DNA of 64,000 nt from Pseudideonella sakaiensis (GTDB taxonomy: Bacteria > Pseudomonadota > Gammaproteobacteria > Burkholderiales > Burkholderiaceae_C): positions 1-64,000 of the forward strand of contig NZ_BBYR01000085.1 in NCBI RefSeq assembly GCF_001293525.1, given 5' to 3'. Of the stretch, positions 3,943 through 63,668 are shown piece by piece. Within the stretch, counting starts at the first letter, position 1. The number at the start of each line of letters is the position of its first letter. Under the pieces are notes generated by a model, which saw only the letters and a program-made list of their open reading frames with translations, was not told where the DNA came from and searched no databases. The position numbers and the translations under genes were made by a program.

Positions 3943-3965
3943 CCGCCCCTGCCCGAGGAACCCCC

Positions 3966-4952: not shown

Positions 4953-4957
4953 GCCGC

Positions 4958-4973
4958 TGGCCGCTTGCGGCCA
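4958..4973. terminator. Possible bidirectional hairpin terminator
   Basis: Perfect inverted repeat TGGCCGC-TT-GCGGCCA between the convergent ends of the copper-chaperone gene and the DUF2894 gene. There is no T-tract on either side, so termination is inferred from position only. Confidence 0.35.
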
Positions 4974-4988
4974 CGGCGCCCGCTGCGC

Positions 4989-6529: not shown

Positions 6530-6536
6530 GCGGGCC

Positions 6537-45312: not shown

Positions 45313-45326
45313 GGCCACCCGCTTGC
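45313..45326 (+). promoter_or_regulatory. Sigma-54-type promoter, mgtC
   Basis: GGCCACCCGCTTGC: GG at 45313-45314, ten bases, GC at 45325-45326, the -24/-12 spacing of sigma-54. The start codon is 62 bases downstream. Confidence 0.5.
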
Positions 45327-45354
45327 CCCCGGCGACCCGCGGGCCGCCGGGGGC
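45325..45354. repeat. Perfect inverted repeat in the mgtC upstream region
   Basis: Arms GCCCCCGGCG (45325-45334) and CGCCGGGGGC (45345-45354) enclose ten bases that include CCCGCGGG. It overlaps the predicted transcription start and could be an operator or part of a leader hairpin. Confidence 0.4.
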
Positions 45355-45387
45355 GACCCCGACCACCCCGACGAGGAGCGCAAGGCC

Positions 45388-46107
45388 ATGGACGAAACCA
45401 CCCTCCGACAGCTCGCAGTCAGCCTGGCCGGCGCCCTCGTGGCCGGCGGCGCCATCGGGCTGGAGCGCAGCCACCGCGGGCGTCCGGCGGGCTTCCGCAC
45501 GCATGCGCTGGTCTGCCTGGCCTCGGCGCTGCTGATGCTCGTGACCACGCTGCCGGAGGCGTCCATTGCGTTGCCGGCGCCCGAGGCGGTCCGGACCGAC
45601 CCGCTGCGCATGGCCCAGGGCATCATGACCGGCATCGGCTTCCTCGGCGCCGGCGTGATCTTCCGCGACGGCCTGTCGGTGCGCGGGCTGACGACGGCCG
45701 CGTCGATCTGGATCACGTCCGCGATCGGCATCCTGGTTGGCATCGGCCTGCACGCGCTGGCGCTCGCGGCCACGCTGCTGACCTTGCTGGTCCTGTCGGT
45801 CTTCCACCGCATCGAGATGCGCCTGCCGAGCCAGGTCTATGCGCATGTGCAGGTCGGCTTCCGGCGCGACGAGGTGATGGACGAACCGGCGCTGCGCGAA
45901 CTGCTCGCGGCGCACCGCTTCCAGGTCGTCAGCGTCAGCCACCGCCTGGCGCCGGAACGCGGCGCGCCGGCGCATTTCGAGTACCGCCTGGTGGTGCTCA
46001 CCCGCGCACCGCAGCAGCTGTCGGCACTGGCCACCACGCTGCGCGCGCTGCCGCGCGTCGTGTCCTTCGGCATCGCGCCCACCATCGACCAGGCGGTGGC
46101 GGGCTGA
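45388..46107 (+). CDS. MgtC/SapB family membrane protein
   Basis: Inner-membrane protein of 239 residues with an MgtC domain of four to five segments. GGAIGLERSHRGRPAGFRTHALV and GIGFLGAGVIFRDG are the diagnostic segments; a soluble ACT-like C-terminus starts near residue 150. MgtC proteins modulate magnesium homeostasis and acid or macrophage stress in other bacteria. GAGGAG lies about 10 bases before the ATG. A sigma-54-like element 62 bases upstream suggests it belongs to the stress island. Confidence 0.9.
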   Translation: MDETTLRQLAVSLAGALVAGGAIGLERSHRGRPAGFRTHALVCLASALLMLVTTLPEASIALPAPEAVRTDPLRMAQGIMTGIGFLGAGVIFRDGLSVRGLTTAASIWITSAIGILVGIGLHALALAATLLTLLVLSVFHRIEMRLPSQVYAHVQVGFRRDEVMDEPALRELLAAHRFQVVSVSHRLAPERGAPAHFEYRLVVLTRAPQQLSALATTLRALPRVVSFGIAPTIDQAVAG

Positions 46108-46177
46108 GCCGGCCCGAGAGCCGGCCGGCGACGGGCCGGCTGCGTGCCCCCGTCGCAGGCGCGGTCGCCCGGGATCG

Positions 46178-48580
<2,403 letters not shown>

Positions 48581-48640
48581 CGCAAGGGGCTCCTGGTGGG
48601 GGCCGCGCACACGGAGGGGCGGCGGCGGGGCCCGCGCCGA

Positions 48641-48654
48641 GCAAGCGGTGTTCC
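48641..48654 (-). promoter_or_regulatory. Sigma-54-type promoter, katE
   Basis: Minus strand GGAACACCGCTTGC with GG and GC separated by ten bases, ending 60 bases before the catalase start. The partner element for the divergent gene lies 34 bases away. Confidence 0.55.
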
Positions 48655-48688
48655 CACGGGTGGCGCCGATTCCTGCGCGGGGAGTGCC

Positions 48689-48702
48689 GGCATCCCGCTT
48701 GC
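48689..48702 (+). promoter_or_regulatory. Sigma-54-type promoter, alcohol dehydrogenase
   Basis: GGCATCCCGCTTGC with GG at 48689-48690 and GC at 48701-48702; the start codon is 41 bases downstream. Confidence 0.55.
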
Positions 48703-48743
48703 CGCTGCACGGGCCCGACAGGACTGCCCCCGAGGCCGCCGCC

Positions 48744-49856
48744 ATGAAAGCCCTCACCTACCACGGCCGGCGCGACGTGCGCGTCGAGTCGGTTCCCGAG
48801 CCGCACCTGCTGGCCGAAGACGATCTGCTGCTGCGCGTCACGGCCACGGCGATCTGCGGTTCGGACCTGCACATCTACCGCGGCCGGCTGCCCGGCATGC
48901 GCAGCGGCGACATCCTCGGCCACGAGTTCATGGGCATCGTCGAGGAAGTCGGGCCGGGGGTGACGCGGCTCGAGCGCGGCGACCGGGTGGTCGTGCCCTT
49001 CACGATCTCCTGTGGCGACTGCTTCTTCTGCACCCGGCGCCTGCTCGCGGCCTGCGAGCGCAGCAACGACGGGCGCGGCACGTTGATGAACCGCAAGCGC
49101 ACCCGGTCCGGGGCCGCGATGTTCGGCTACAGCCACCTGTACGGCGGCCATGCCGGCGGCCAGGCCGAATACGTTCGCGTGCCGCGGGCCAACGTGGGCC
49201 CGCTGCGGATCGCGGACTCGACGCTGCGCGACGAACAGGTGCTCTTCCTGTCCGACATCCTGCCCACCGGCTACCAGGCCTGCCTCAACGCGCGCATCGG
49301 TCCGGGCTCGACGGTGGCCATCTTCGGCGCCGGCCCGGTCGGCATGATGGCGGCCGCCTGTGCCCGCTGGCTCGGCGCGCAACGCCTGTTCATGATCGAC
49401 GAGGACCCGCGGCGGCTGGCTCATGCGCGCGAGACCTGCGGCGCGACCACGCTGGACTTCGCCAGCGTGGACGACCCGGCCGACTTGATCATCGGCGAGA
49501 CCGATGGCCGTGGCGTCGATGCCAGCATCGACGCCGTCGGCTTCGAAGCCAAGGGCAGCGCGATCGAGAGCGCGCTCACCCGGCTGCGCCTGCAGGGCTC
49601 CAGCGGCGCGGTGCTGCGCCAGGCGATCGCCGCGACGCGGCGCGGCGGCGTGGTCAGCGTGCCCGGCGTCTATGCCGGCTTCATCCACGCCTTCCTGTTC
49701 GGCGACGCCTTCGAGAAGGGGCTGACCCTGGTCGGCGGCCAGACCCACGTGCAGGCGCTGATGCCGGTGCTGCTCGAGGCGATCGCCAGCGGCGGCCTGG
49801 TGGTCGACACGCTGGTCTCGCACCGGCTGCCGCTGTCCGAGGCGGCCGCCGGCTAA
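48744..49856 (+). CDS. Zinc-dependent alcohol dehydrogenase, C-terminally truncated by a nonsense codon
   Basis: MDR-family dehydrogenase of 370 residues related to glutathione-independent formaldehyde dehydrogenases. Catalytic zinc ligands include Cys38 (AICGSDLH) and His60-Glu61 (GHEFMG). Structural zinc Cys are 90, 93, 96 and 104. The NAD fold is AIFGAGPVGMMAAA. Reading stops at TAA 49854-49856. The same frame continues for 18 codons (RQFDTRTQGCRKVVLTPD) to a TGA at 49911-49913. That is the expected family terminus, which normally reads (A)Y-R-x-F...KVVL. So a TAC Tyr codon appears to have become TAA. Activity may be impaired by loss of the last strand. It diverges from katE. Confidence 0.82.
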   Translation: MKALTYHGRRDVRVESVPEPHLLAEDDLLLRVTATAICGSDLHIYRGRLPGMRSGDILGHEFMGIVEEVGPGVTRLERGDRVVVPFTISCGDCFFCTRRLLAACERSNDGRGTLMNRKRTRSGAAMFGYSHLYGGHAGGQAEYVRVPRANVGPLRIADSTLRDEQVLFLSDILPTGYQACLNARIGPGSTVAIFGAGPVGMMAAACARWLGAQRLFMIDEDPRRLAHARETCGATTLDFASVDDPADLIIGETDGRGVDASIDAVGFEAKGSAIESALTRLRLQGSSGAVLRQAIAATRRGGVVSVPGVYAGFIHAFLFGDAFEKGLTLVGGQTHVQALMPVLLEAIASGGLVVDTLVSHRLPLSEAAAG

Positions 49857-49913
49857 CGCCAGTTCGACACGCGGACGCAGGGTTGTCGCAAGGTCGTGCT
49901 GACGCCGGATTGA
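49857..49913 (+). pseudogene. Detached C-terminal remnant of the alcohol dehydrogenase
   Basis: In-frame continuation after the TAA stop of the dehydrogenase, encoding 18 residues with the family-typical GCRKVVLTP end and then TGA. It would be translated only by read-through. Beyond it, up to 50263, I see only a terminator and no gene. Confidence 0.7.
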
Positions 49914-50002
49914 CCGGCGGTCGGCGCAGGCAGCGCGCAGGCACGCCGGCTGCCCCTGGGCGGTCGGGCCTCGGCAGAGGCTCACGATGCAACCCCCTTC
50001 GG

Positions 50003-50028
50003 CCATCCTGCGGGATGGTCGCTTTTTT
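50003..50028 (+). terminator. Intrinsic terminator after the alcohol dehydrogenase
   Basis: Hairpin CCATCC-TGCG-GGATGG followed four bases later by six T (50023-50028). It is correctly placed for ending transcripts of the dehydrogenase gene. Confidence 0.7.
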
Positions 50029-50263
50029 GGGGGCGCGCCCGAACCGCTCCAGCGCGTCCCGACCGATCCCGTCGCTTCTTGCAGCAAAAGTTTCCATGTC
50101 CGGACCCGACTCGGCCCGTGTCGGTATCTCCGCATGAACCCGCCCGGCCACCCGCATGGTCGGTGGCGCTGGATCGTCGACGCCCGTGCAGCGCCCGCCT
50201 TGCACGGGTCGTGCTTGGATGCGACGGGCAGCCGTGAGCTGCCTCACGTCAACGCCTCGATCC

Positions 50264-52528
50264 GTGCCCGTCACCATCCGGTCCCGCCTCACGCTGCTGG
50301 TGCTGTTCGTGCTGCTGCCGGCGGCCATCGGCGTGGTCTGGCTCGTCGGACGCACCTTCGTCGCCGAGCGCGAGTCGCATGTGCGCATGCTGCGCGAGAC
50401 GGCGCGCGCCATGTCACTGCTGGTGGACCGCGAACTGGCCGGGCGGGCGGCCATGGCCCAGGTGCTTGCGCAGTCGAGCCGGCTCGACGGGAAGCCGCTG
50501 CCTCGCCCGACGAGATCGCGCAGTTCGAGGTGCAGGCGCGGCGCGCGATGGCAGGACTGGACGGCTGGCTCGAGCTGCGCGGACCGGGCCAGCTGCTGCT
50601 CGACACCCGCCGTCCACCCGACGAGTCCGGCCCCACCCGGACGTTCGCACGCTTGTTCCACAGCCCGGTGATGCAGCCCTTGCAGCGCCACGACCTGCGC
50701 ACCGGCGCACCGGCCCATGCGGCGATCGTGGCCCCGGTGCAGCGCGCCGGCAGCACGCGCATGAACGTGGTCGTGACGGTGCCGGCCACGCACATGCAGA
50801 AACTGGTCGACGATCTGGCGTTGCCGCCGGCTGGATGGGCGCCGTGGTCGACCACGGAGGCCGGGTCGTGGCGCGCCAACCGGGGCGCAGCGAGTACCTG
50901 GGGCGGCCGGTGTCGGACGACCTGCGCGCAACGCTGGCGTTGGCGCCGGAAGGCCTGTTCGAATCGGTCTCCCTCGACGGCGTGCCCACGATTGGCTATT
51001 ACAGCACCTCCGGGCTGGGCTGGACCTACGTGAGCGCGATGCCCCGCGAGCAGTACGCCGGCGTGCTGCCGGACGCGGCGCGGCGGGTCGGCCTCGGCGC
51101 GCTGCTGCTGCTGGGGCTGGGCCTGCTGGGCGCCCGGCAGGTCGCGGGCGGGATCGTGCGGGCGGTCCAGACGCTGGAGGCGGTCGCTGCCGGCCTGCGT
51201 GCCGGCCTGCCGCCGCGCAGCGAGCGGACCGGCATCGTCGAATGCGACGAGGTAGCTCGTGCGCTGGCCGAGGCGGCCGAGGAGGTCCGGCAGCACCGCA
51301 GCGGGCTCGAGGACCAGGTCGCGCAGGCCGTGGAGCGCACGCGGTTGGCCGAGCAGCGCGCGTCGCAGAGCCGGCGGGTCGAAGCGCTCGGCCGGCTGAC
51401 CGGCGGCGTGGCGCACGACTTCAACAACCTGCTCGGCGTGATCGGCAACAGCGCCCAGCTGATGCTGCGCCATCCGAGCGCGGCCCAGCTGCAGTGCCCC
51501 TGTCGGCACTGCTGCATTCGGTGGAGCTGGGCAGCCGGCTGACCGAGCACCTGCTGCGCTTCGCCGGCCGCCGGCCGGTGCGGCCCGCGCTGCTGCACCT
51601 GCGGCGGACCCTGCCCGAGCTGCACGAGCTGCTGCGCAGCGTGCTCGGCCGGCACGTCTCGATCCGCGTCACGGTGGCACCCGACACCGCGCCGGTGCGG
51701 GTGGATGCGAGCGAGTTCGAGCTGGCCCTGATCAACCTCGCGCTGAATGCGCGCGACGCGATGCCGGACGGCGGCGAGGTGAGGCTGTCGGCACGCAATG
51801 CGAGCGCGGAGGAATCCGACGGGCTTCCGCCGGGACCGGCGGTGCTCGTCAGCGTGGGAGACGATGGCCCGGGCATTTCCGCCGAGGTGGTCGAGCGCGC
51901 CTTCGAGCCCTTCTTCACCACCAAGGCGGCGGGGCTGGGCTCCGGCCTCGGGCTGTCGCAGGTGCATGGCTTCGCGACGCAATCGGGCGGACTGGCGCGG
52001 ATAGCCTCCACCCCTGGCCTCGGCACGTCCGTCTCGATCGTGCTGCCCGCCGCGACAGAAGACCGGGCGGCCGGCACGGTGCCCGCACTGGCGGCCGGCG
52101 CGGGCGCGCCACGGGAAGGCGGCGACGCGCCGGGCGACGTGGCCGGTCTGCACATCCTCGTCGTGGAAGACAACGAGGACCTCGGCAGCGTGACCGCGGA
52201 GCTGCTGCGCGAGCACGGAGCCCGGGTCGAGCGTGCGCCGCAGGCGGACGAGGCCCTGGAGTGGATCGAGGCGGGCCACCGCTGCGACGTGGTGCTGTCC
52301 GACGTGGTAATGCCGGGGCGCTTCGACGGCGTGGAACTGGCCCGCCGCCTGAAGCGGCGGGCCCCGCCCGTGCCGGTGGTGCTGACCACCGGCTTCAGCC
52401 GCTCGGCGACACGGGTACCGGGCGAGTTCACCGTGCTGCGCAAGCCCTGTCCGCTCGACCTGCTGCTGCGCACGCTGGCTGCGGCGGCACGGCCGGATGC
52501 CGCGCCGGACGGCAGCCACGACCCGTGA
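50264..52528 (+). pseudogene. Hybrid sensor histidine kinase, broken by three frameshifts
   Basis: Read across frames this is a membrane hybrid kinase. It has a first membrane segment (LTLLVLFVLLPAAIGVVW), a periplasmic Cache-like domain, a second segment (LGALLLLGLGLLGARQV), HAMP-like helices and the H-box GGVAHDFNNLLGVIGN. These are followed by NLALNARDAM, DDGPGIS, GSGLGLSQ, and a receiver domain with VVEDNEDL and VVLSDVVMPG. The reading frame changes near 50500 (SPDEIAQF begins), near 50830 (MGAVVDHGG begins) and near 51497 (PLSALLHSVELG begins). Each change equals the loss of one base. There are no stops inside the pieces. Either the gene is recently inactivated or the assembly has indels here. 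GTG 50264 is a plausible start. Confidence 0.8.
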
Positions 52529-52561
52529 CGCCGGAGGCGGGCGGCTCCGCGTGGACCGCCT

Positions 52562-52861
52562 TCAGCCCCCGCGGCTTCGGCGGCGCCGCAACCACCGCCC
52601 GAGCAGCCGCAGGCCCACCCAGGTCACGAGCACCAGTCCCGCCGCGCCCAGCGCGGACGCCGCCAGCGCGTCGAGGTCGACCCGCACCGCGCCGCGCGGC
52701 ACATCGTCGGCGACCGCGGCCCGGCACCAGCGCCCGCCCCAGGCGCCGGCCACACCCAGCGCCACGTTGCCCGCCACGTCACGCAGCCGCTCCAGCTGCA
52801 GCACGACGCTGATCAGCCAGCCCAGCAAGCCCCCCGCGACGAGACCCACCGTCAGGTCCAT
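52562..52861 (-). CDS. GlsB/YeaQ/YmgE-like small membrane protein
   Basis: Protein of 99 residues with membrane segments at about 3-22 and 60-85. The start LTVGLVAGGLLGWLISVVLQ and the middle GNVALGVAGAWGGRW resemble the GlsB/YeaQ/YmgE (transglycosylase-associated) stress family, although here the second half ends in a very basic tail (RLLGRWLRRRRSRGG). It lies 80 bases downstream of the short-chain dehydrogenase on the same strand, without its own -24/-12 element, so it is probably co-transcribed with it. Confidence 0.75.
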   Translation of the reverse strand: MDLTVGLVAGGLLGWLISVVLQLERLRDVAGNVALGVAGAWGGRWCRAAVADDVPRGAVRVDLDALAASALGAAGLVLVTWVGLRLLGRWLRRRRSRGG

Positions 52862-52941
52862 GCACGCCCTCCCCCGGCCGCTGCGCCGGACTCCCGGCGC
52901 GCCACCCGACGCGCCGGCCCCCTCGCGCCGGGATCGGCCCG

Positions 52942-53925
52942 CTAGCCGACCGATCCCGTCACCGGCAGCACGATCCCGGTGATGTAGCCAGCGCACACCG
53001 GCGAGGCCAGGAAGACGAAGGCCGGCGACAGCTCCTCCGGCTGCGCGGCCCGCTTCATGTCGGTCTGGCGGCCGAACACGGCGACGGCCTCCGCAGGTGA
53101 ATCGGCGGGGTTGAGCGGCGTCCACACCGGACCCGGGGCGACCGCGTTGACGCGGATGCCGCGCGCCAGCAGCTGGCTGGCAAGCGACTGGGTCAGCGCA
53201 TGGATCGCGCCCTTCGAGGCCGCGTAGTCCACCAGGTGGGCGCTGCCGCGCAGACCGGTCACAGAACCGGTGTTGATCACCGAGGCGCCCCGCTTCAGGT
53301 GCGGCAGTGCAGCCCGGGTCATGCGGATGCAGCCACCGACGTTGGTGTCCAGGGTCTCGTGCACGCGCCGGTCGTCGAGGTCCTCCAGCGCGTTCGCATG
53401 GGCCTGGAAGGCCGCGTTGTTCACCAGGACATCCAGTCGGCCGAGCTGTTCGACGGTGTGCGCCACCGCCTGCTCGCACCAGCGGCTGTCCTTCACGTCG
53501 CCGCGCAGCAGCACGCAGCGCCGCCCCTCGGCCTCGACGTGGCGGGCCGTCTCGCGCGCGTCCTCGTCCTCGTCGGCGGACTGGTAGGCGATCGCCACGT
53601 CGCAGCCCTCGCGCGCGAACAGCACCGCGACGGCACGGCCGATGCCGCTGTCGCCGCCGGTCACCAGCGCCGCCAGACCCTCGAGCTTGCCGCTGCCCCG
53701 GTAGCCCGGCGCCTCGAAGCGCGGCGCCAGGTCGAGCGCCGCCTCGCGCCCGGGCTTGACGAGGTGCTGGGCCGGCAGCTCGACCGGCTGCTCGCGGTCC
53801 CCGGCCTGCACCGCCTCTCCGGCCGGGGGCGCCGGGGATGGCGGGGGGGACGGCGCCGCCTCGTCGCGCCGGTCCTGGGCGCGCTGGATCTCGCGCGGAA
53901 TCTTCGTGCTGTCGTCGTCGGCCAT
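52942..53925 (-). CDS. SDR family oxidoreductase (YghA-like)
   Basis: NAD(P)-dependent short-chain dehydrogenase of 327 residues. After an acidic, Pro-rich N-terminus of about 75 residues comes the cofactor motif VTGGDSGIGRA, then NNAAFQ, catalytic Ser in NTGSVTG, and YAASKG carrying Tyr and Lys. The C-terminal VWTPLNPAD and FLASPVCAGYITGIVLPVTG are typical of the YghA/general stress protein 39 group. The N-terminal PREIQRAQDR segment is also characteristic. AAGGAG precedes ATG 53923-53925; a longer start would run into its sigma-54-like promoter (53967-53980). Confidence 0.88.
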   Translation of the reverse strand: MADDDSTKIPREIQRAQDRRDEAAPSPPPSPAPPAGEAVQAGDREQPVELPAQHLVKPGREAALDLAPRFEAPGYRGSGKLEGLAALVTGGDSGIGRAVAVLFAREGCDVAIAYQSADEDEDARETARHVEAEGRRCVLLRGDVKDSRWCEQAVAHTVEQLGRLDVLVNNAAFQAHANALEDLDDRRVHETLDTNVGGCIRMTRAALPHLKRGASVINTGSVTGLRGSAHLVDYAASKGAIHALTQSLASQLLARGIRVNAVAPGPVWTPLNPADSPAEAVAVFGRQTDMKRAAQPEELSPAFVFLASPVCAGYITGIVLPVTGSVG

Positions 53926-53966
53926 CGTTGCTCCTTCGGCGCAGGCTGCGCCACGACAGCCTCGCG

Positions 53967-53980
53967 GCAAGCCGGGTGCC
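53967..53980 (-). promoter_or_regulatory. Sigma-54-type promoter, SDR gene
   Basis: Minus strand GGCACCCGGCTTGC, GG and GC ten bases apart, 41 bases before the start codon; identical to the sigma-54 core GGCAC-N5-TTGC. Confidence 0.6.
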
Positions 53981-54072
53981 CGCGGAGCGCGCGGCGAATC
54001 GACCCACGCGCGTCGACGACGGGGATGGAGCCGGGCGCGCGCGCGACGGCTCCTTCGCGTCGGCCCCGCGCC

Positions 54073-54417
54073 TCAGGCCGACGGCCGAACGGCGATGGGC
54101 GCGGGCCGCTGCCGCGGCACGACCGGTTCCGGCTCGGCCCGCGGGCAGCTGCCGCCGCATGCGCCGCGGCAGGCCGGGCCACGGGACTCGGATGGGCCGG
54201 CGACGCGCAGTGCCTGCGGCGAGATCGGCTCGTGCACCGGTGGCGGCGTCGGGATCCAGGGATCCTGCGGCGGCTGCGGCGGCTCGTTCACCTCGGGCGG
54301 CGCCGCGGGTGGCTCGTTGACCTCGGGCGGGACCTCGGGGGACGGGGCCGGCCGGGGCGGCTGCGGCACCGAGTCGGGCAGGTGGGGCGGGATGTCGGGG
54401 GTCGAATGGGCGTTCAT
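54073..54417 (-). CDS. Proline-rich small protein
   Basis: Protein of 114 residues, about one third Pro. A direct repeat PPEVNEPP occurs twice around residues 30-50, mirrored by a repeated GGCTCGTT(C/G)ACCTCGGGCGG in the DNA. A C-terminal block has CRGACGGSC. No signal peptide; probably disordered. GAGGAG precedes ATG 54415-54417, and a -24/-12 element lies about 30 bases further upstream, which supports expression. Function unknown. Confidence 0.6.
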   Translation of the reverse strand: MNAHSTPDIPPHLPDSVPQPPRPAPSPEVPPEVNEPPAAPPEVNEPPQPPQDPWIPTPPPVHEPISPQALRVAGPSESRGPACRGACGGSCPRAEPEPVVPRQRPAPIAVRPSA

Positions 54418-54446
54418 GGCGGGCTCCTCTCGGAACGCCCGCCTCG

Positions 54447-54460
54447 GCAAGCGCCGTTCC
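54447..54460 (-). promoter_or_regulatory. Sigma-54-type promoter, proline-rich protein
   Basis: Minus strand GGAACGGCGCTTGC with correct GG-N10-GC spacing, 29 bases before the start codon. It is only 3 bases from the divergent element at 54464-54477. Confidence 0.55.
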
Positions 54461-54463
54461 CAC

Positions 54464-54477
54464 GGCATGCGGCTTGC
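54464..54477 (+). promoter_or_regulatory. Sigma-54-type promoter, DUF6496 gene
   Basis: GGCATGCGGCTTGC with GG at 54464-54465 and GC at 54476-54477, 35 bases before the start codon. Confidence 0.55.
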
Positions 54478-54512
54478 CACCCCGAGGCATCCCGCCACTC
54501 CCGGAGAGTCCG

Positions 54513-54692
54513 ATGCCCAAACGTCAGAGTGCCGCGTCGCGCAGCGTCGAGCGCGCGATGCACGAGTTCAAGGAGGGCGACCTGCGCAGCGGCCAGACCG
54601 GCCGCAAGGTCACCGACCGCCGCCAGGCCGTCGCGATCGGCCTGTCCGAGGCCCGGCGCAAAGGCGCGCGGGTGCCGCCGAAGAAGTCATGA
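54513..54692 (+). CDS. DUF6496 domain-containing small protein
   Basis: Basic protein of 59 residues matching the short DUF6496 type: a Lys/Arg N-terminus, MHEFKEGDLRSGQTGRKV, and RRQAVAIGLSEARRKGARVP at the end. Similar proteins are abundant in stationary-phase or stress islands of proteobacteria and may bind nucleic acid, though this is not established. GGAGAG lies 7 bases before the ATG. It is followed by an overlapping small gene. Confidence 0.85.
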   Translation: MPKRQSAASRSVERAMHEFKEGDLRSGQTGRKVTDRRQAVAIGLSEARRKGARVPPKKS

Positions 54693-54883
54693 ACCGCCCG
54701 CCGACAGCGCCGGCGGGGGCCCGGCCCGAGCCCCTCCCCCGGCCGGCCCCGCCGCCGGCCGTGCCCGCGGATCGGTCGGTCGCGGGCGAGGAGGACCCGG
54801 GCGCCGCCCTGGACCAGGCCGAGGTGCCCACGCCCACGCCGGGGCCCGCGCCCCGCCCCGCCCGCGGCACGACTCGCGGCTGA
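54689..54883 (+). CDS. Small proline-rich protein
   Basis: Protein of 64 residues, Pro/Ala-rich with an acidic centre (GEEDPGAALDQAEVPTP). It is considered real mainly because its ATG overlaps the stop of the DUF6496 gene (ATGA) and the pair follows a shared promoter-like element. No family, signal or membrane segment is visible; it is likely disordered. Confidence 0.45.
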   Translation: MNRPPTAPAGARPEPLPRPAPPPAVPADRSVAGEEDPGAALDQAEVPTPTPGPAPRPARGTTRG

Positions 54884-54929
54884 GCCCGCCGACCGCCGGC
54901 ACCCCGAGGGCACCGGGCCACTCGGCCCG

Positions 54930-55139
54930 TCAGCCGCGGTGCTTGCCGCGGCCCGATTCGCGTGCCGCCGCGCGGCGCCCGGCGGCGCGCCGCGCGGCCG
55001 ACTCGCCGACGGTTTCCGCATCGGCGACGGCCGGGCGCTCGGTGATCTCGTCGAGCCAGGTGTCACCGCCCGGCGGCGCGGGCGCCGGTGCGTCGAGGGC
55101 CGTCCGTCGCGGCCGCGGGCCACCGCCGGCGCGCTTCAC
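54930..55139 (-). CDS. Small basic hypothetical protein
   Basis: Protein of 69 residues starting at GTG 55137-55139, which overlaps the stop of the upstream membrane-protein gene (GTGA). It contains one ordered-looking part, GGDTWLDEITERPAVADAETV, and a very basic C-terminus (RRAAGRRAAARESGRGKHRG in two parts). Its overlap with the membrane-protein gene suggests coupled translation. No family recognised. Confidence 0.45.
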   Translation of the reverse strand: MKRAGGGPRPRRTALDAPAPAPPGGDTWLDEITERPAVADAETVGESAARRAAGRRAAARESGRGKHRG

Positions 55140-55609
55140 CGGCGCGCTCCGGCCAGGCCCAGCCCCAGCGCAAAGGCGCCATAGACCACGACCAGCCCGC
55201 CGGCCGACAGCCGGTGCTCGAAGCCGGGCGTGAAGCGCGGGGGCGTCACGGCCAGGTCCACCCACGCCGCCAGGCCGGCCACCGCCACCGCATCCGACAT
55301 CGCGTTCGCCGGCGTGGGCCGGGCGCGCCGGAGCCGCAGGGCAGCGTACACCCCCGCCCACAGCATCGACGAAGCGGTGTGGATAGCCAGGCCGGTGGCC
55401 GTGTGGCGCAGCGAGGGCTCGTCGGCGCGCAGCGCGCGCCGCGGCCACACCCAGTGGCTGATGGCATTCAGCGGCGCGCACGGTCGGCGCTGTTCGCGCG
55501 CGCCGCAACCGGCCAGCGCAGCGGCCGACACGAGGCTGGCGACGAGGCCATCGACCACGGTGCGGTGGACGATCGGATGCTTCGCCAGGCGGCCGCAGGC
55601 AGAGGTCAT
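55136..55609 (-). CDS. Hypothetical membrane protein
   Basis: Protein of 157 residues with about four hydrophobic segments: residues 15-32 (VDGLVASLVSAAALAGCG), 65-88 (TGLAIHTASSMLWAGVYAAL), 95-115 and 130-155. The segment PLNAISHWVWPRRA between the first two is distinctive and is known to me from uncharacterised proteins in similar stress islands. GGAG precedes ATG 55607-55609, and a -24/-12 element lies 35 bases upstream. Confidence 0.65.
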   Translation of the reverse strand: MTSACGRLAKHPIVHRTVVDGLVASLVSAAALAGCGAREQRRPCAPLNAISHWVWPRRALRADEPSLRHTATGLAIHTASSMLWAGVYAALRLRRARPTPANAMSDAVAVAGLAAWVDLAVTPPRFTPGFEHRLSAGGLVVVYGAFALGLGLAGARR

Positions 55610-55619
55610 GGCGGGCTCC

Positions 55620-55633
55620 GGTACGTGATTTGC
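55620..55633 (+). promoter_or_regulatory. Sigma-54-type promoter, SDR-DoxX gene
   Basis: GGTACGTGATTTGC with GG at 55620-55621 and GC at 55632-55633, 40 bases before the start codon. It deviates at the third base but keeps TTGC and the spacing. Confidence 0.45.
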
Positions 55634-55643
55634 CCAGGACCGG

Positions 55644-55657
55644 GCAAGTGCCGTTCC
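55644..55657 (-). promoter_or_regulatory. Sigma-54-type promoter, membrane protein at 55136
   Basis: Minus strand GGAACGGCACTTGC with GG-N10-GC spacing, 34 bases before the start codon. It overlaps the predicted start region of the divergent gene. Confidence 0.55.
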
Positions 55658-55673
55658 TTCCCGCCCCGCCACC

Positions 55674-56999
55674 ATGCAGATCCTGCTCGTCGGCGCCACC
55701 GGCTTCCTCGGTCGTCGGCTGCGCCTTGCTCTCGCCGCACGCGGCCACCACCTGCGCTGCACCTCCCGGCATCCACCGCTGCCGGCGCACGGGACGCCCA
55801 CGGGCGAGGAATGGGTGGCGGTCGACCTCGCGGCCCCGGTCGACTGGGCCCCGCTGCTGAACGGGATCGACGTCGTGGTCAACGCCGCCGGGCGCTTCGG
55901 GGGCGGCCGGGCCGCCTATGCCGCCCTCCACACCGACGGGCCGATCGCCCTGTTCGAGGCCTGCGCGAGGGCCGGCATCGGCCGCGTGCTGCAGATCTCC
56001 GCCCTCGGCAGCGGCGGCCCCGCCGACGACGCACTGCCCTTCCTGCGCAGCAAGCGCCTGGCCGATGCCCGCCTGCTCGCGCTGCCGCTGGACGCCACGG
56101 TGGCACGCCCCTCGCTGGTCTTCGGCCCCGAGGGGCGCAGCGCGCGCGCGCTGATGGCCGCGGCGAGCCTGCCGTGGCTGCCCCTGCCCGCCGGCGGACG
56201 CCAGGCCGTGCAGCCGGTGCACGTGGACGACGCGGTGGCCGCGCTGTGCGCGCTGGCCGAGGCCCGCGGCCGCTGGCGCGGCCGCGTGGTGGCGCTGGTC
56301 GGGCCTGCCGCGATGAGCCTGCGCGACTACCTGGCGACGCTGCGCGCCGCCCAGGGACGGGGGCCGCTGCGCGCCGTGCCGGTGCCGGGCCGGCTGGTGG
56401 CGGCGCTGGCCCGCCTCGCCGGGCGCCTCGGCACGGGCCTCGACCGCGACGCCGGGGCGCTGCTCGAGGGCGGCAGCACCGGCGATCCGGCCGACCTGCA
56501 CGCCCTGGGCATCGCGCCCCGCCCCGCTTCGGCCTTCATCCAGCCCGAGGAGGCCCCGGCGCTCGCGCTGGCCGCGGCCTGGCCCGGCATGCAGGCCTTG
56601 GCGCGTCTGGCGCTGGCCGCGGTCTGGTGGGCATCGGCTGCGGTGTCCTTCGGCCTGTACCCGGTGGAACTCGGCGCCGCGCTGCTCGGCGAGGCGGGCG
56701 TGCCGGGCCCGCTGCAGCGCCCGATGCTGTACGGGGCCGCGACGCTGGACGCGGTGCTGGGGGTGCTGACGCTGGCCCCGCTCGCGATGCGGCTGCAGCG
56801 CCGACTGTGGGCGGCCCAGGCGCTGCTGGTGGTCTTCTACAGCGCCGTGGTGACGGTGACGATGCCGGCTTTCTGGCTGCATCCCTTCGGGCCGATGACC
56901 AAGAACCTGCCCATCCTGGCGCTGCTCGCGCTGCTCGCGTGGGCCGCGGTGCCTCCCCGACCATGGACTACCTCGTCGTCAAGTGGATCCACGTGCTGA
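55674..56999 (+). CDS. SDR NAD-dependent epimerase fused to a DoxX-like membrane domain
   Basis: Protein of 441 residues. The N-terminal 290 or so residues are an atypical SDR (NAD(P)H-binding/NmrA-like), with ILLVGATGFLGRRLRLAL and the VQPVHVDDAVAAL segment, but without a classical YxxxK. The C-terminal part (about 300-430) has four hydrophobic segments of the DoxX-like family (WWASAAVSFGLYPVE and AQALLVVFYSAVVTVTMP). The fusion occurs in other proteobacteria and may be a membrane-associated oxidoreductase. Its last 37 bases overlap the following gene. Confidence 0.85.
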   Translation: MQILLVGATGFLGRRLRLALAARGHHLRCTSRHPPLPAHGTPTGEEWVAVDLAAPVDWAPLLNGIDVVVNAAGRFGGGRAAYAALHTDGPIALFEACARAGIGRVLQISALGSGGPADDALPFLRSKRLADARLLALPLDATVARPSLVFGPEGRSARALMAAASLPWLPLPAGGRQAVQPVHVDDAVAALCALAEARGRWRGRVVALVGPAAMSLRDYLATLRAAQGRGPLRAVPVPGRLVAALARLAGRLGTGLDRDAGALLEGGSTGDPADLHALGIAPRPASAFIQPEEAPALALAAAWPGMQALARLALAAVWWASAAVSFGLYPVELGAALLGEAGVPGPLQRPMLYGAATLDAVLGVLTLAPLAMRLQRRLWAAQALLVVFYSAVVTVTMPAFWLHPFGPMTKNLPILALLALLAWAAVPPRPWTTSSSSGSTC

Positions 57000-57580
57000 G
57001 CGCCACGGTGCTGTTCGGCACCGGCATCGGCAGCGCCTACTTCCTGCTGCTGACCAGCCTGCAGCGCGAGCCCGCCACCGTGGCGCGCGTGGCCCGCCTG
57101 GTGGTCTGGGCGGACGCGGTGTTCACGGCCACGACCGCGGTGCTGCAGCCGCTCACCGGCACCTGGATGCTGCTGCGCCTGAACCTGCCGGTGTCCACGC
57201 CGTGGGTGGCCTGGAGCCTGGGCCTGTATGCCTTCGCGATCGCCTGCTGGCTGCCGGTGGTGGTGCTGCAGTGGCACATGAGCCGTCTGGCCGCGGCAGC
57301 GGCCGAACGGCACCGCGCGCTGCCGCCGGCCTACGGCCGCCTGCTGGCGGCCTGGACGGTGCTCGGCGTGCTGGCGCTGGTCGCCTTCCTGGCGATCTTC
57401 TGGCTCATGGTCGCGCGCACCGTGCCATGGGTCGGCGCGCGGCCGCTCGCCGGGGGCGGCACCCCGCTTGCCGGGTGGGCAGACGCCGGCCCGCGCGCCC
57501 TGCGCCGGCCCTTCGCCGTCCTCCAGGACGGTCCCCCTCTTTCCAGGAGAAGCCCATGCCCCGGATCGCCGAGATCATGA
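56963..57580 (+). CDS. DUF2269 family membrane protein
   Basis: Inner-membrane protein of 205 residues with four hydrophobic segments and the DUF2269 opening YLVVKWIHVLSATVLFGTGIG. The family domain ends near residue 155 (LAIFWLMVARTVP). The remaining 50 residues are low-complexity and run over the sigma-54-like promoter (57458-57471), the ribosome binding site and the first 25 bases of the CBS gene, so the natural stop seems to have been lost. The gene starts inside the previous one, indicating coupling with the SDR-DoxX protein. Confidence 0.82.
   Translation: MDYLVVKWIHVLSATVLFGTGIGSAYFLLLTSLQREPATVARVARLVVWADAVFTATTAVLQPLTGTWMLLRLNLPVSTPWVAWSLGLYAFAIACWLPVVVLQWHMSRLAAAAAERHRALPPAYGRLLAAWTVLGVLALVAFLAIFWLMVARTVPWVGARPLAGGGTPLAGWADAGPRALRRPFAVLQDGPPLSRRSPCPGSPRS
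57458..57471 (+). promoter_or_regulatory. Sigma-54-type promoter, CBS protein
   Basis: GGCACCCCGCTTGC, an exact GGCAC-N5-TTGC core with GG at 57458-57459 and GC at 57470-57471, 84 bases before the start codon and inside the 3' end of the DUF2269 reading frame. Confidence 0.6.
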
Positions 57581-58005
57581 CCACCGAGGTCTGCACCATC
57601 CAGCCCCAGGACAGCCTGCGCACCGCGGCGCAGCGGATGAAGGAACAGGACATCGGCGCGCTGCCGGTCTGCGACGGCGAGAAGCTGCTGGGCATGCTCA
57701 CCGACCGCGACCTCGCGATCCGCGGCATCGGCGAGGGCCTCGCACCGGACCAGGCCTGCGTGTCGGACGTGATGAGCCCCGACATCGCGTTCGTCACCGC
57801 CGACGAAGGCTGCGACGAGGTGCTGCAGCGCATGGGCCGGGAGCAGCTGCGCCGGCTGCCGGTGATCGATGCCGAACGGCGGCTGGTCGGCATCGTCTCG
57901 CTCGGCGACCTGGCCACGCGCCAGGACGGGCACGTCGATGCTGCGCTGCGCGGCGTCTCGTCGCCCGGCAGCGGTGCCGCAACCGGCCACCCGGGCGGCG
58001 CCTGA
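57556..58005 (+). CDS. CBS-pair domain protein
   Basis: Protein of 149 residues made of two CBS repeats. The first is about 8-60 (MTTEVCTIQPQDSLRTAAQ, GALPVCDGEKLLGMLTDRDLAIR) and the second about 72-130 (VMSPDIAFVTADEG, RRLPVIDAERRLVGIVSLGDLA). Such stand-alone pairs bind adenine nucleotides and often act in stress responses. AGGAG lies 8 bases before the ATG. The C-terminal 18 residues are Gly/Ser/Ala-rich. Confidence 0.9.
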   Translation: MPRIAEIMTTEVCTIQPQDSLRTAAQRMKEQDIGALPVCDGEKLLGMLTDRDLAIRGIGEGLAPDQACVSDVMSPDIAFVTADEGCDEVLQRMGREQLRRLPVIDAERRLVGIVSLGDLATRQDGHVDAALRGVSSPGSGAATGHPGGA

Positions 58006-58025
58006 GGCGCCGCGCGGCCCGACTG

Positions 58026-58039
58026 GGAACGGCCCTTGC
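58026..58039 (+). promoter_or_regulatory. Sigma-54-type promoter, Gly/Arg-rich protein
   Basis: GGAACGGCCCTTGC with GG at 58026-58027 and GC at 58038-58039; the start codon is 87 bases downstream. Confidence 0.5.
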
Positions 58040-58126
58040 CTCGAGCCCCTGCAGGCGCCGGCAACGCAGCGCGTCGCCGCACCTGCCTTCTCTCCAGCAC
58101 AGACACACGACACGAAAGGATCCACG

Positions 58127-58894
58127 ATGCGAGACCATGACGAAGGCCGCCGCGGCGGCCAGTACGGCGGTGACGACTTCGGCGGCCGGCGCGGCGGCCA
58201 GCAGGAGGCCTACAGCGGCGGCACGCGCAGCCGCAGCGGCAGCAACTACGGCGACTGGCGCGGGCCGCAGCACGGCGACGACGAGGAGAGCGCGGGGTCG
58301 CGCCGCTACGAGTCCGGCGACCGCGGCTGGAACGCCGGCCGCGGCGACAGCCCCTGGGGCGACGGCGCCGGCGGACGTGGTGGCGGCTGGCTGGGTTACC
58401 CGTCGCGCGAGGGCTATGGCCAGGGCGCGGAGCCCGGCCGCCCGCAGGGCGGTGGCTGGGGCCGCGAGGTCCCCGGCGGCGGCCTGCCCTCGCACTGGAC
58501 CGGATCGAGCGGTCCCGGCGGCGGCCTGCGCGGCAGCGGCGACCCGGGCGGCTCGCGCGGCTTCGGCGGGTCGGCCGACGCGGACGACCGCTTCGACCCC
58601 GACTACCACCAATGGCGCAGCGAGCAGATGAGGCAGCTCGACGACGACTACCGTCAATGGCGCCAGGACCGCTACCAGAAGTTCAGCGACGAGTTCTCGA
58701 CCTGGCGCAGCAGCCGCGGCGAACGCGGCTCGGGGGCCGAGGGCGGCAGAAGCGCCGGCCGCCCGGGCGACGCCACCGCGGCGGGATCTGCCAGCAGCGG
58801 CTCGACGCCCACGACATCGGTGGGCACCACCACCGGCGGCAGCACGAGCGGCGGCTCGGGAGGCAGTTCGGGGGGCAGTTCGAAGAGCCGCTGA
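58127..58894 (+). CDS. Gly/Arg/Ser-rich protein with tandem WR repeats
   Basis: Protein of 255 residues. Residues 1-150 are Gly/Arg/Asp/Ser-rich and probably disordered. About 150-195 contains three related units ending in Trp-Arg: DPDYHQWRSEQ, DDYRQWRQDRY and DEFSTWRSSRG. A Ser/Gly/Thr-rich tail follows. The repeat module is one I associate with uncharacterised stress-island proteins of Burkholderiales; its role is unknown. AAAGGA lies 6 bases before the ATG. It converges on rpoN. Confidence 0.75.
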   Translation: MRDHDEGRRGGQYGGDDFGGRRGGQQEAYSGGTRSRSGSNYGDWRGPQHGDDEESAGSRRYESGDRGWNAGRGDSPWGDGAGGRGGGWLGYPSREGYGQGAEPGRPQGGGWGREVPGGGLPSHWTGSSGPGGGLRGSGDPGGSRGFGGSADADDRFDPDYHQWRSEQMRQLDDDYRQWRQDRYQKFSDEFSTWRSSRGERGSGAEGGRSAGRPGDATAAGSASSGSTPTTSVGTTTGGSTSGGSGGSSGGSSKSR

Positions 58895-58952
58895 TCCCGC
58901 CAGGCCCGCGCGCGGCCCGCAGGGGCTGCGACGGGGCCTGCCGTGCCGGACT

Positions 58953-60443
58953 TCAGTCGGCGGCGAGTCGCCGCCGGCGCCCGACCGCCTCGATCTTCAT
59001 CATCTGCCGGTACTTGGTGACGGTCCGGCGGGCCACCGGCAGGCCCTGCTCCGCGAGCTGGTGCGCGATCTGCGCATCCGACCACGGGGCGGTCGGCCGC
59101 TCGGCGGCGATCACCTCGGCGACCAGCTCGCGGATGGCCGTGCCCGAGCAGGGCCGTCCGCTGCTCGACATGAGCGCGCGACCGAAGAAGTAGGTCAGCT
59201 CGAAGGTGCCGAAGGGCGTCGCGATGTACTTGTTGTTGGTCACCCGCGAGACCGTGCTCTCGTGCACCTGCACCTCGTCGGCGACCTCGCGCAGGCTGAG
59301 CGGCTTCATCGCCATCGCGCCGTGGTCGAAGAACCCGCACTGCCGCCGCACGATCGAGCCGGCGACGTCGAGGATGGTCGCGAAGCGCTGCTCGACGTTG
59401 CGCAGCGTCCAGCGCGCCTCGTGCAGCTGGACGCCCAGCGGGGCGTTGGCCGCGCCGCGGTGGCGCTGGAACAGCCCGGCATAGACCTCGTTGATCCTGA
59501 GCCGGGGCACCACGGCCGGGTTGAGCTGCACCGTCCACCCCCCGGCGGTACGGCGAACGACGACGTCCGGCACGATGTAGCGCGTGCGCTCGCCGCCGAA
59601 CTGCCAGCCGGGCCGAGGCTGCAGGCGGCGGATGCGGTCGCAGGCCGCCTCCACCTGCTTCGGCGGTTCGCCGAGGCAACGGGCCAGGCGGGCCATGTCG
59701 CGCGCCGCCAGTGCGGGCAGCTGCTCGCGCACGATGCGCGTGGCCAGCTGCCGTTCCTGCGCCGATGCGATCGCCGGCATCTGCAGCAGCAGGCATTCGG
59801 CCACGCTGGTGGCGCCGACGCCCGCCGGTTCGAGCGATTGCAGCAGGCGCAGCGCCACACGCAGTTCCTCCAGCGACGCCGGCGGATGCAGCGCCACCAC
59901 CGGAACCAGGTCCTGCAACGGGCTGCGCAGGTAGCCGTCGTCGTCGAGCGATTCCACGATCGCGCGCAGCATCACCTCGTCGCGCTGGCCGAGCTTCAGC
60001 AGGTCGACCTGGGCGTGCAGGTGCGCATTCAGCGCGGACTCGACCGCCATGCCCTCCAGGGCGTCGGCCGCTCCGTCCTCGCGGCCCGGCCCGCGGCCGC
60101 CGTCGGACTGCCACAGCGCACGCTCGTCCGCCCCCTGGGCATCGGGCGGTCCGGGGCCGCCATCGCGCCACGACTCGTCCGCGGCGCTCGCCGGATCGCG
60201 ATCACCGGCAGCCCACGGCGGATCCGCGCGGGCAGGCGCGTCGGCGTCGAGGTCGCCACGCCCGAGGGGGTCGTCGCCGACGTCGCCTTCTTCGCGCTCG
60301 AGGAAGGGGTTGCTGTCCAGCTTCTCGCGCAGCAGCGCCGCGAAGTCGAGCGAGGACATCTGCAGCAGCCGCACCGCGTGCTGCAGGCGGGGCGACAGGG
60401 CCTGGGACGGCCGGAGATCGGGACGCAGGTCGAGCAGGGCCAT
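58953..60443 (-). CDS. rpoN: RNA polymerase sigma-54 factor, divergent paralogue
   Basis: Sigma factor of 496 residues. The N-terminal activator-binding region (LSPRLQHAVRLLQMSSLDFAALL, given in parts) resembles region I. An acidic, Gly/Asp-rich region II spans about 50-125, and a core-binding region about 135-330. The helix-turn-helix LREVADEVQVHESTVSRVT follows, and the RpoN box is ARRTVTKYR near residue 476. Differences from housekeeping RpoN include NNKYIATPFGTFELTYFF in place of the usual TNKY-type segment and a basic tail after the box. The usual rpoN neighbours (lptB, hpf, ptsN) are absent. This suggests a second rpoN serving the surrounding genes. TGGAGG precedes the ATG. Confidence 0.9.
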   Translation of the reverse strand: MALLDLRPDLRPSQALSPRLQHAVRLLQMSSLDFAALLREKLDSNPFLEREEGDVGDDPLGRGDLDADAPARADPPWAAGDRDPASAADESWRDGGPGPPDAQGADERALWQSDGGRGPGREDGAADALEGMAVESALNAHLHAQVDLLKLGQRDEVMLRAIVESLDDDGYLRSPLQDLVPVVALHPPASLEELRVALRLLQSLEPAGVGATSVAECLLLQMPAIASAQERQLATRIVREQLPALAARDMARLARCLGEPPKQVEAACDRIRRLQPRPGWQFGGERTRYIVPDVVVRRTAGGWTVQLNPAVVPRLRINEVYAGLFQRHRGAANAPLGVQLHEARWTLRNVEQRFATILDVAGSIVRRQCGFFDHGAMAMKPLSLREVADEVQVHESTVSRVTNNKYIATPFGTFELTYFFGRALMSSSGRPCSGTAIRELVAEVIAAERPTAPWSDAQIAHQLAEQGLPVARRTVTKYRQMMKIEAVGRRRRLAAD

Positions 60444-60623
60444 GGCGGCCTCCAGCAGTGGGGTCGACGGATGCAACGCAATCCCCGTGCCCCGGTGACG
60501 GCGGGCGCACGGTGACCCGCGGCCCGGTGGGCGCGGGCACCGCGGCCGCCCGACGGCGCCGCACGCCTCGTCCTTGCCGGTCCGCCCGCCGATTGCGGCA
60601 AGCCTTGCCGATGCCATGAGGAA

Positions 60624-60637
60624 GGCACGCGCCTTGC
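60624..60637 (+). promoter_or_regulatory. Sigma-54-type promoter, hemerythrin gene
   Basis: GGCACGCGCCTTGC, an exact GGCAC-N5-TTGC core with GG at 60624-60625 and GC at 60636-60637, 38 bases before the start codon. Confidence 0.6.
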
Positions 60638-63446: not shown

Positions 63447-63668
63447 GGAGTCACTCCTCGTCTGCGAAGGGAGAAGGCTCGACACAACGGCCCGTCGAGG
63501 TCGGTCACGCCGGCCCAACATAGCAGGCGCGACGCGTGCCTGTCACCTGTCAGCTTCGACAGTCCGCCAAAGACCCCGGTGCGGTCCGGCCACGGCAAGT
63601 TCGGAAGAATCCGCGTTCAGCGCGCGAAGCGTGACCCGGCCGCACGAAGGCGGCCGCCCTTCCCGACC

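What the first reader, a model, noticed from the sequence alone, without database searches (positions are those of the whole stretch)
45313..60637. A cluster of eleven sigma-54-type promoters around a second rpoN
Eleven start regions between 45.3 and 60.7 kb have GG-N10-GC with TTGC at -12, on the correct strand and 29-87 bases before the start codon. The genes are mgtC, katE, alcohol dehydrogenase, SDR, Pro-rich, DUF6496, SDR-DoxX, membrane protein, CBS, Gly-rich and hemerythrin. Nine read GG(A/C)A(C/T)-N5-TTGC, and three are exact GGCAC-N5-TTGC. An rpoN paralogue lies in the same island. I know of no described stress regulon of this gene content run by a local RpoN. No sigma-54 activator (GAFTGA) is in the window, so the trigger is open.
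Basis: partly seen in the sequence, partly recalled or inferred. Interest (0 to 1): 0.78.

Follow-up and report, generated by a model that had tools for sequence, protein, structure and literature searches.

The report
Stress genes under a second sigma-54
A block of stress-protection genes in this bacterium carries the promoter marks of a spare sigma-54 factor encoded among them, and similar sets (spare sigma-54, a matching activator and marked stress genes) recur in other bacteria of its order, which points to a little-described kind of stress response.

Summary
GGMAY-N5-TTGC occurs 10 times in 48.6-60.7 kb, where the genome's rate predicts 0.25. These ten, plus one GGTAC variant, face a start codon 29-87 nt away. 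The mgtC site is weak; a site before rpoN2 itself was missed; the genome has three rpoN genes.

Relatives suggest a system. rpoN2 and rpoN3 fall in a separate RpoN clade (100/100) with RpoN box ARRTVTKYRQ in 9 of 9 rows, against ARRT(V/I)AKYR(E/D) in 25 of 25 housekeeping rows. Six more genomes chosen by that box alone give 35 sites against 2 for the reversed pattern, before hemerythrin, BON, DUF2383, CBS, PfpI and rpoN2 genes. A distinct response-regulator activator occurs in all six, on the rpoN2 contig in five. In this genome its relative adjoins rpoN3 on another contig and lacks the DNA-binding domain: a candidate for the missing trigger.

Precedent: B. pseudomallei RpoN2 is needed for normal katE expression (PMC4745423). 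Verdict: new variant of a known kind; no expression data, and RpoN2-versus-RpoN1 use is unproven.

The parts
45313..45326 (+). weak sigma-54-like site before mgtC (doubtful)
   Evidence: GGCCACCCGCTTGC, 61 nt before ATG 45388; fits only GG-N8-TTGC
45388..46107 (+). mgtC
   Evidence: PF02308, 131 bits
46178..48580 (-). katE, long catalase
   Evidence: PF00199 596.6 bits, PF06628, PF18011; start
48641..48654 (-). site GGAACACCGCTTGC, 60 nt before katE
48689..48702 (+). site GGCATCCCGCTTGC, 41 nt before the alcohol dehydrogenase gene
48744..49856 (+). zinc-type alcohol dehydrogenase
   Evidence: PF08240, PF00107
50156..52528 (+). hybrid histidine kinase/receiver gene spread over three reading frames; related to the G030 kinase that has a site of its own
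   Evidence: PF02518 and PF00072 in 51242-52525; 58% over 318 aa to G030; frames seen
52942..53925 (-). short-chain dehydrogenase (SDR)
   Evidence: PF13561 188.3 bits
53967..53980 (-). site GGCACCCGGCTTGC, 41 nt before SDR
54073..54417 (-). Pro-rich protein, 114 aa
   Evidence: no Pfam match for the longer ORF holding it
54447..54460 (-). site GGAACGGCGCTTGC, 29 nt before the Pro-rich gene
54464..54477 (+). site GGCATGCGGCTTGC, 35 nt before the DUF6496 gene
54513..54692 (+). DUF6496 protein, 59 aa
   Evidence: PF20106 74.7 bits; G046 homologue also has a site, at 33 nt
55136..55609 (-). small membrane-like protein, 157 aa
   Evidence: no Pfam match
55620..55633 (+). site variant GGTACGTGATTTGC, 40 nt before the SDR-DoxX gene
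55644..55657 (-). site GGAACGGCACTTGC, 34 nt before the 157-aa gene
55674..56999 (+). SDR-DoxX fusion
   Evidence: PF01370, PF13781
57458..57471 (+). site GGCACCCCGCTTGC, 84 nt before the CBS gene
57556..58005 (+). CBS-pair protein, 149 aa
   Evidence: PF00571 97.3 bits in the ORF that holds it
58026..58039 (+). site GGAACGGCCCTTGC, 87 nt before the Gly-rich gene
58127..58894 (+). Gly-rich protein, 255 aa
   Evidence: no Pfam; 41-aa core 76% identical to a G034 protein whose gene also has a site
58953..60443 (-). rpoN2, sigma-54 paralogue with RpoN box ARRTVTKYRQ
   Evidence: PF00309, PF04963, PF04552
60624..60637 (+). site GGCACGCGCCTTGC, 38 nt before the hemerythrin gene
60676..61182 (+). 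hemerythrin-domain protein, 168 aa
   Evidence: PF01814 53.1 bits in the ORF that holds it

Best explanation
The cluster is a sigma-54 stress regulon served by its own RpoN paralogue. RpoN2 holds RNA polymerase at -24/-12 promoters before katE, alcohol dehydrogenase, SDR, CBS, hemerythrin, DUF6496 and other small stress-type genes and before rpoN2 itself; a response-regulator-type activator (bEBP) of one clade, probably driven by hybrid histidine kinases, opens them. In most relatives the activator lies near rpoN2. In this genome it lies beside rpoN3 on contig C36, with a receiver too diverged for Pfam and no Fis-type DNA-binding domain, so it may act from solution. Shown from sequence: promoter elements, their clustering and placement, the RpoN clade and box, the activator clade and its linkage in relatives. 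Inferred: that RpoN2 (not RpoN1) reads the sites, that this activator serves them, the kinase link, the self-regulation, and that stress is the trigger.
For: Clustering and placement. Site before rpoN2 genes: 10 of 14 whose start could be placed have one within 117 nt, two more at 197 and 286 nt, none for W rpoN3 and G432; six further loci not placed by that script, of which G028 and the Comamonadaceae plasmid have one close before the gene. RpoN2 has all three sigma-54 domains and sits in a clade apart from housekeeping RpoN with a diagnostic RpoN box. In 17 other loci fetched by rpoN or activator similarity: 94 sites against 5 for the reversed pattern; in six genomes picked by the box alone: 35 against 2. 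Same gene families behind the sites: katE W and G034; DUF6496 W and G046; Gly-rich W and G034; hemerythrin W, G068, G432, G358, G077; BON G030, G295, G358; DUF2383 G028, G295, G069; CBS W, G331, B. pyrrocinia. Activator clade: 65-72% identical among G030, G028, G046, G034, 4-16 kb from rpoN2 in G030, G028, G046, G034 and G052. In the 80 relatives it occurs (at least 50% identity, E <= 1e-90) in 6 of 8 genomes with an extra rpoN and 4 of 72 others (P 1.8e-5). Outside evidence: B. pseudomallei rpoN2 mutant loses KatE activity, restored by complementation (PMC4745423, passages).
Against: No expression or binding data. The C36 stretch with rpoN3 and the activator has only one pattern match in 37 kb and no site before rpoN3. 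The activator's identity in this genome is only 46-51% and it lacks the HTH that the relatives have. No common upstream activator-binding dyad was found. G011 has sites and an rpoN2 fragment but no activator of the clade (best 39%). G077, G069 and G016 have the activator and 7 sites but no rpoN2. Several W genes (ADH, Pro-rich, SDR-DoxX, mgtC) gave no relative in the islands compared, and katE in G028 has no pattern site directly before it. Burkholderia rpoN2 does not join the clade under midpoint rooting.
Confidence: 0.7

Rival explanations
1. The promoters are sigma-54 promoters but are read by housekeeping RpoN1; rpoN2 is a passenger or a redundant copy.
For: Loci with the activator but no rpoN2 (G077, G069, G016) still carry 7 such sites, before hemerythrin, DUF1328 and DUF2383 genes among others. 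The core GGCAC-N5-TTGC is the canonical one. B. pseudomallei rpoN2 restored amino-acid use in an E. coli rpoN mutant (PMC4745423, abstract), so such paralogues can overlap in function.
Against: Physical linkage of rpoN2 with the sites across families; conserved site before rpoN2; consistent changes in RpoN box and elsewhere between the clades; base after TTGC and before GG differ from the glnK sites of relatives.
Confidence: 0.2
2. A two-step cascade: RpoN1 (or RpoN3) with the activator turns on rpoN2, and RpoN2 then serves a separate promoter class with C after TTGC.
For: Base after TTGC: C in 0 of 14 rpoN2 promoters against 40 of 60 other sites with a placed gene (Fisher P 3e-6; sites kept: 36 of 69, 30 of 35). 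Differential recognition of position -11 by RpoN1 and RpoN2 is on record in Cereibacter sphaeroides (PMC11999139, passage read).
Against: Post hoc. C falls to 12 of 27 non-rpoN2 sites in the six genomes chosen by the box. Genome-wide counts of the two forms in 80 genomes show no visible difference with rpoN2. No significant glnK site for a same-genome comparison in W, G030, G028 or G034.
Confidence: 0.3
3. The repeated element is an operator for an ordinary DNA-binding regulator (GGCA-N7-TGCC is a dyad), not a sigma-54 promoter.
For: With C after TTGC the element is a perfect GGCA-N7-TGCC dyad.
Against: Many sites are not dyads (base after TTGC T, A or G in 18 of 30; GGAAC forms in W); strand-specific and spaced 29-87 nt before start codons in W; co-located with rpoN and a sigma-54 activator.
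Confidence: 0.04
4. Chance matches in a 75% G+C sequence.
For: The textbook 16-mer with mismatches is not enriched in the window.
Against: 0 of 100 shuffles, P 2.3e-13 at the genome's own rate; recurrence in relatives down to 52% G+C (G068, 3 sites, 0 reversed).
Confidence: 0.01

Closest known systems
Burkholderia pseudomallei RpoN2 and katE (Diep et al. 2015, PMC4745423; abstract and passages read)
   Same: A second RpoN, on chromosome 2, with a predicted RpoN box before katE; the rpoN2 mutant has less katE transcript and no KatE activity, restored by the gene
   Different: Reported for katE; no activator and no wider stress regulon in the passages I saw. Burkholderia rpoN2 rows (B. pyrrocinia, B. 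stagnalis, B. arboris) share the box ARRTVTKYRQ but not the clade under midpoint rooting. I did not compare the B. pseudomallei protein itself
Cereibacter sphaeroides RpoN1-RpoN4, each with a cognate bEBP (PMC11999139, passages read)
   Same: Several RpoN copies, those studied each paired with a particular activator; RpoN3 with AprX, an activator that has a receiver domain
   Different: Targets there are nif, flagellar and xrpA genes; here stress-type genes
rpoN1/rpoN2 of Ralstonia solanacearum and Xanthomonas (PMC4371752, PMC4676750, PMC7280030, PMC7970052; search listings and abstract starts only)
   Same: Two rpoN copies with partly separate roles
   Different: Motility, virulence and metabolism in the listings; no promoter-dense stress island with rpoN2 seen there
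General stress responses by RpoS, SigB or EcfG (recalled; EcfG papers seen only as listings)
   Same: Gene content of the same kind: katE, CsbD, hemerythrin, CBS, DUF892, PfpI, trehalose genes
   Different: Sigma-70-family factors; here a sigma-54 that would need an ATP-driven activator

Membership tests
sigma-54 (-24/-12) promoters | GG-N10-GC with GGCAC/TTGC-like elements, correct strand, shortly before genes | tested here: met
   10 GGMAY sites plus one GGTAC in the cluster, 29-87 nt before start codons
sigma-54 (-24/-12) promoters | full consensus TGGCACG-N4-TTGCW (recalled) | tested here: not met
   T before GG in 3 of 36 and A/T after TTGC in 7 of 36 kept island sites; 16-mer with mismatches not enriched
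sigma-54 (-24/-12) promoters | transcription starts about 12 nt after the GC and needs RpoN | not testable with these tools
   no expression data
RpoN (sigma-54) family | activator-interacting, core-binding and DNA-binding domains | tested here: met
   PF00309 44.1, PF04963 175.8, PF04552 185.9 bits, all over cut-off
RpoN (sigma-54) family | RpoN box ARRTVAKYRE | tested here: inconclusive
   variant ARRTVTKYRQ; Geobacter RpoN has ARRTVTKYRE (PMC2725144, passage), so the A-to-T change alone is compatible with a working RpoN
NtrC-type bEBP (relatives' activator P0002) | receiver, AAA+ with GAFTGA-like loop, Fis-type HTH | tested here: met
   PF00072, PF00158, PF02954; GSFTGA loop
NtrC-type bEBP (this genome's C36 copy) | receiver and Fis-type HTH beside the AAA+ domain | tested here: not met
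   PF00158 219 bits and lid domain only, neither PF00072 nor PF02954 at E <= 0.001; ORF stops after the lid; GSFTGA kept
bacterial general stress regulon | induced by several stresses and protective | not testable with these tools
   gene content only

The most novel reading that the evidence does not exclude
A sigma-54-based general stress response: an RpoN paralogue with an altered RpoN box and its own activator run an autoregulated stress regulon, with rpoN2 in a promoter class apart from its targets. In this genome, which has no RpoS above the curated cut-off, it would stand in for RpoS, and its activator, stripped of DNA-binding domain and recognisable receiver, would open the regulon's promoters from solution.
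Probability: 0.22. Interest if true: 0.82.

Novelty: new variant of a known kind. Interest (0 to 1): 0.62.

Why it matters
Sigma-54 is usually tied to nitrogen, motility and similar single-purpose genes, and general stress responses to sigma-70-type factors (recalled). If the reading is right, a sigma-54 with a linked activator was recruited, across several families of one order, to run a set of stress genes of the RpoS/SigB/EcfG kind, which makes control strictly activator- and ATP-dependent. It would put the single B. pseudomallei RpoN2-katE result into a wider regulon and offer natural material for the question of how RpoN paralogues keep their promoters apart.

Tried and rejected
Textbook 16-mer with mismatches: no enrichment. 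Genome-wide TTGCC against TTGCW counts in 80 genomes: no visible rpoN2 effect, probably swamped by coding sequence (read by eye, no test run). Same-genome comparison with glnK promoters: no significant site in W, G030, G028 or G034, so the canonical reference is 9 significant sites among 28 glnK starts in other genomes; C after TTGC 28 of 36 island sites against 2 of 9, T before GG 3 of 36 against 8 of 9. In EBP-bearing loci without rpoN2 the base after TTGC is A 4, G 2, C 1 of 7, and T before GG 1 of 7, so T before GG does not separate RpoN2 from RpoN1 targets. Upstream activator dyad: the leading candidate GGCA-N7-TGCC turned out to be the promoter itself. A PACGI-1 precedent that I recalled (an extra RpoN on the P. 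aeruginosa clone C island): the two clone C papers listed hold no 'rpoN'; dropped. Other rpoN hits (L063-L066, 28-38% identity) were not used. L174 (3 kb) and W's own C36 stretch (1 site in 37 kb) are not in the 94-against-5 count. The mgtC site is left doubtful.

Literature searches behind 'not described': (PMC open-licence papers only). One search found no paper with four of its six terms.
Full report
OBSERVATION. GGMAY-N5-TTGC occurs 11 times in the window against a shuffle mean of 1.43 (0 of 100 shuffles reach 11); 10 lie in 48,641-60,637. The genome has 129 such matches in 6.14 Mb and 45 for the pattern read backwards, so 0.25 is expected in that stretch (P 2.3e-13). These ten and the GGTAC variant at 55,620 face a start codon 29-87 nt away. 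Gene names are borne out for MgtC, KatE, alcohol dehydrogenase, SDR, DUF6496, SDR-DoxX, CBS, RpoN and hemerythrin; the Gly-rich and membrane-like proteins have no Pfam match, nor has the ORF holding the Pro-rich one. The mgtC site is weak. The textbook 16-mer with mismatches is not enriched, because T before GG and A/T after TTGC are mostly absent.

THE SIGMA FACTOR. The genome has three rpoN genes. RpoN2 has all three sigma-54 domains. In a tree of 34 rows RpoN2, RpoN3 and seven rows from relatives (two named Rhizobacter) form a clade with full support apart from 25 housekeeping rows. All 9 have RpoN box ARRTVTKYRQ; the 25 have ARRT(V/I)AKYR(E/D). Three Burkholderia rpoN2 rows and one from a Comamonadaceae plasmid share ARRTVTKYRQ, and G052 has ARRTVAKYRT. 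With these rows added, the Burkholderia and G052 copies sit between the two groups on a midpoint-rooted tree, so one or several origins cannot be told. A DNA pattern for RRTVTKYRQ is found in 8 of 399 genomes of the order, the window's included.

RELATIVES. Loci fetched for rpoN or activator similarity, not for sites, are dense in sites: in 17 loci outside this genome 94 matches against 5 for the reversed pattern (three of these genomes, G077, G069 and G016, have no rpoN2, and G034b is a second G034 locus with the activator only). As an independent test I took the six further genomes found by the RpoN-box pattern alone: 35 matches against 2 in six 19.9-kb stretches. Behind the sites stand hemerythrin (G432, G358), BON (G295, G358), DUF2383 (G295), CBS and PfpI (G331) and GlsB/YeaQ-type (G165) genes by Pfam, and rpoN2 itself (G180, G295, G165). 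Elsewhere: BON, GlsB-type, DUF2383, PRC, DUF6496, CsbD, DUF1328; hemerythrin, DUF1328, DUF2383, katE, DUF892, PfpI. katE has a site at 60 nt in the window and 39 nt in G034; katE of G028 has none directly before it. The Gly-rich protein shares a 41-aa core at 76% with a G034 protein whose gene also has a site. On the B. pyrrocinia plasmid rpoN2 lies among DUF3008, DUF1328, CBS and trehalose genes with the activator 10 kb away.

THE ACTIVATOR. None of the 19 PF00158 matches of the genome is on C85; one is on C36 beside rpoN3. In G030, G028, G046 and G034 an activator of one clade (65-72% identical) lies 4-16 kb from rpoN2, and in G052 6 kb. It has receiver, AAA+ and Fis-type HTH domains. Over the 80 relatives it occurs (at least 50% identity, E <= 1e-90) in 6 of 8 genomes with an extra rpoN and 4 of 72 others. 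Two hits under 50% (G010, G015) were not counted. In the six box-chosen genomes it is present in six (56-75%), on the rpoN2 contig within about 3-31 kb in five; G068 has a partial 57% match, G011 none above 39%. The window genome's copy (C36:85682-86866, 0.3 kb from rpoN3, divergent) is 46-51% identical to the clade, keeps GSFTGA and the AAA+ fold, but matches neither the receiver nor the HTH family and ends after the AAA+ lid. A DUF2383 gene follows rpoN3. That stretch has just one pattern match in 37 kb. Activators without DNA-binding domain that work from solution are known (recalled: FlgR, CtcC).

MECHANISM. Most likely RpoN2 (perhaps RpoN3) holds polymerase at these promoters, the activator opens them, and rpoN2 amplifies itself. 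Ten of 14 rpoN2-type genes with a placed start have a site within 117 nt, two more within 300 nt, W rpoN3 and G432 none; six starts could not be placed. Hybrid kinases in the islands (W, G030, G028, Rhizobacter) may feed the activator; this is inference. A post hoc finding: the base after TTGC is C in 40 of 60 other sites and 0 of 14 rpoN2 promoters (P 3e-6), as if rpoN2 were in another promoter class than its targets. It is strong in the first set (28 of 33) and weaker in the box-chosen set (12 of 27). Differential use of position -11 by two RpoN copies is on record in Cereibacter (PMC11999139, passage). Whether RpoN2 and not RpoN1 reads the sites is open: three genomes with the activator and no rpoN2 have 7 sites.

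STRESS. The window genome has no RpoS above the curated cut-off (best 275.5 against 378.7 bits); so too G011, G016, G052 and G069, whereas G030, G028, G046, G034, G068 and G077 have one. The system therefore coexists with RpoS in several relatives and may be a substitute only in some.

NOVELTY. Second RpoN factors with their own targets are known, and B. pseudomallei RpoN2 is needed for katE expression (PMC4745423, abstract and passages). I found no paper on a multi-gene stress regulon with a linked activator (open PMC papers only). Hence: new variant of a known kind.

Noticed in passing
50156-52528: The hybrid histidine-kinase gene is spread over three reading frames relative to its intact G030 homologue; a broken gene or errors in a high-G+C draft assembly.
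   Followed up: partly
39436-41577 and 61251-63521: The cluster is flanked by two GGDEF-EAL proteins (MHYT-type and GAF-PAS-type).
   Followed up: no
55841-55933: ARAGORN calls a tRNA-Arg (ccg) on the minus strand inside the SDR-DoxX gene; probably false.
   Followed up: no
L176 (Burkholderia pyrrocinia plasmid) 2045-9457: Encapsulin with Dyp-type peroxidase and two sigma-54 activators a few kb from a CBS/trehalose/rpoN2 stress block.
   Followed up: no
L067/L069, G030 island position 14215: An FtsH-like AAA protease gene (read from its sequence) has a GGAAC-N5-TTGC site 62 nt before its start.
   Followed up: no
L173 (G034:C11): G034 has a second activator of the clade with its own set of sites (katE, Gly-rich) on a different contig from rpoN2.
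   Followed up: partly
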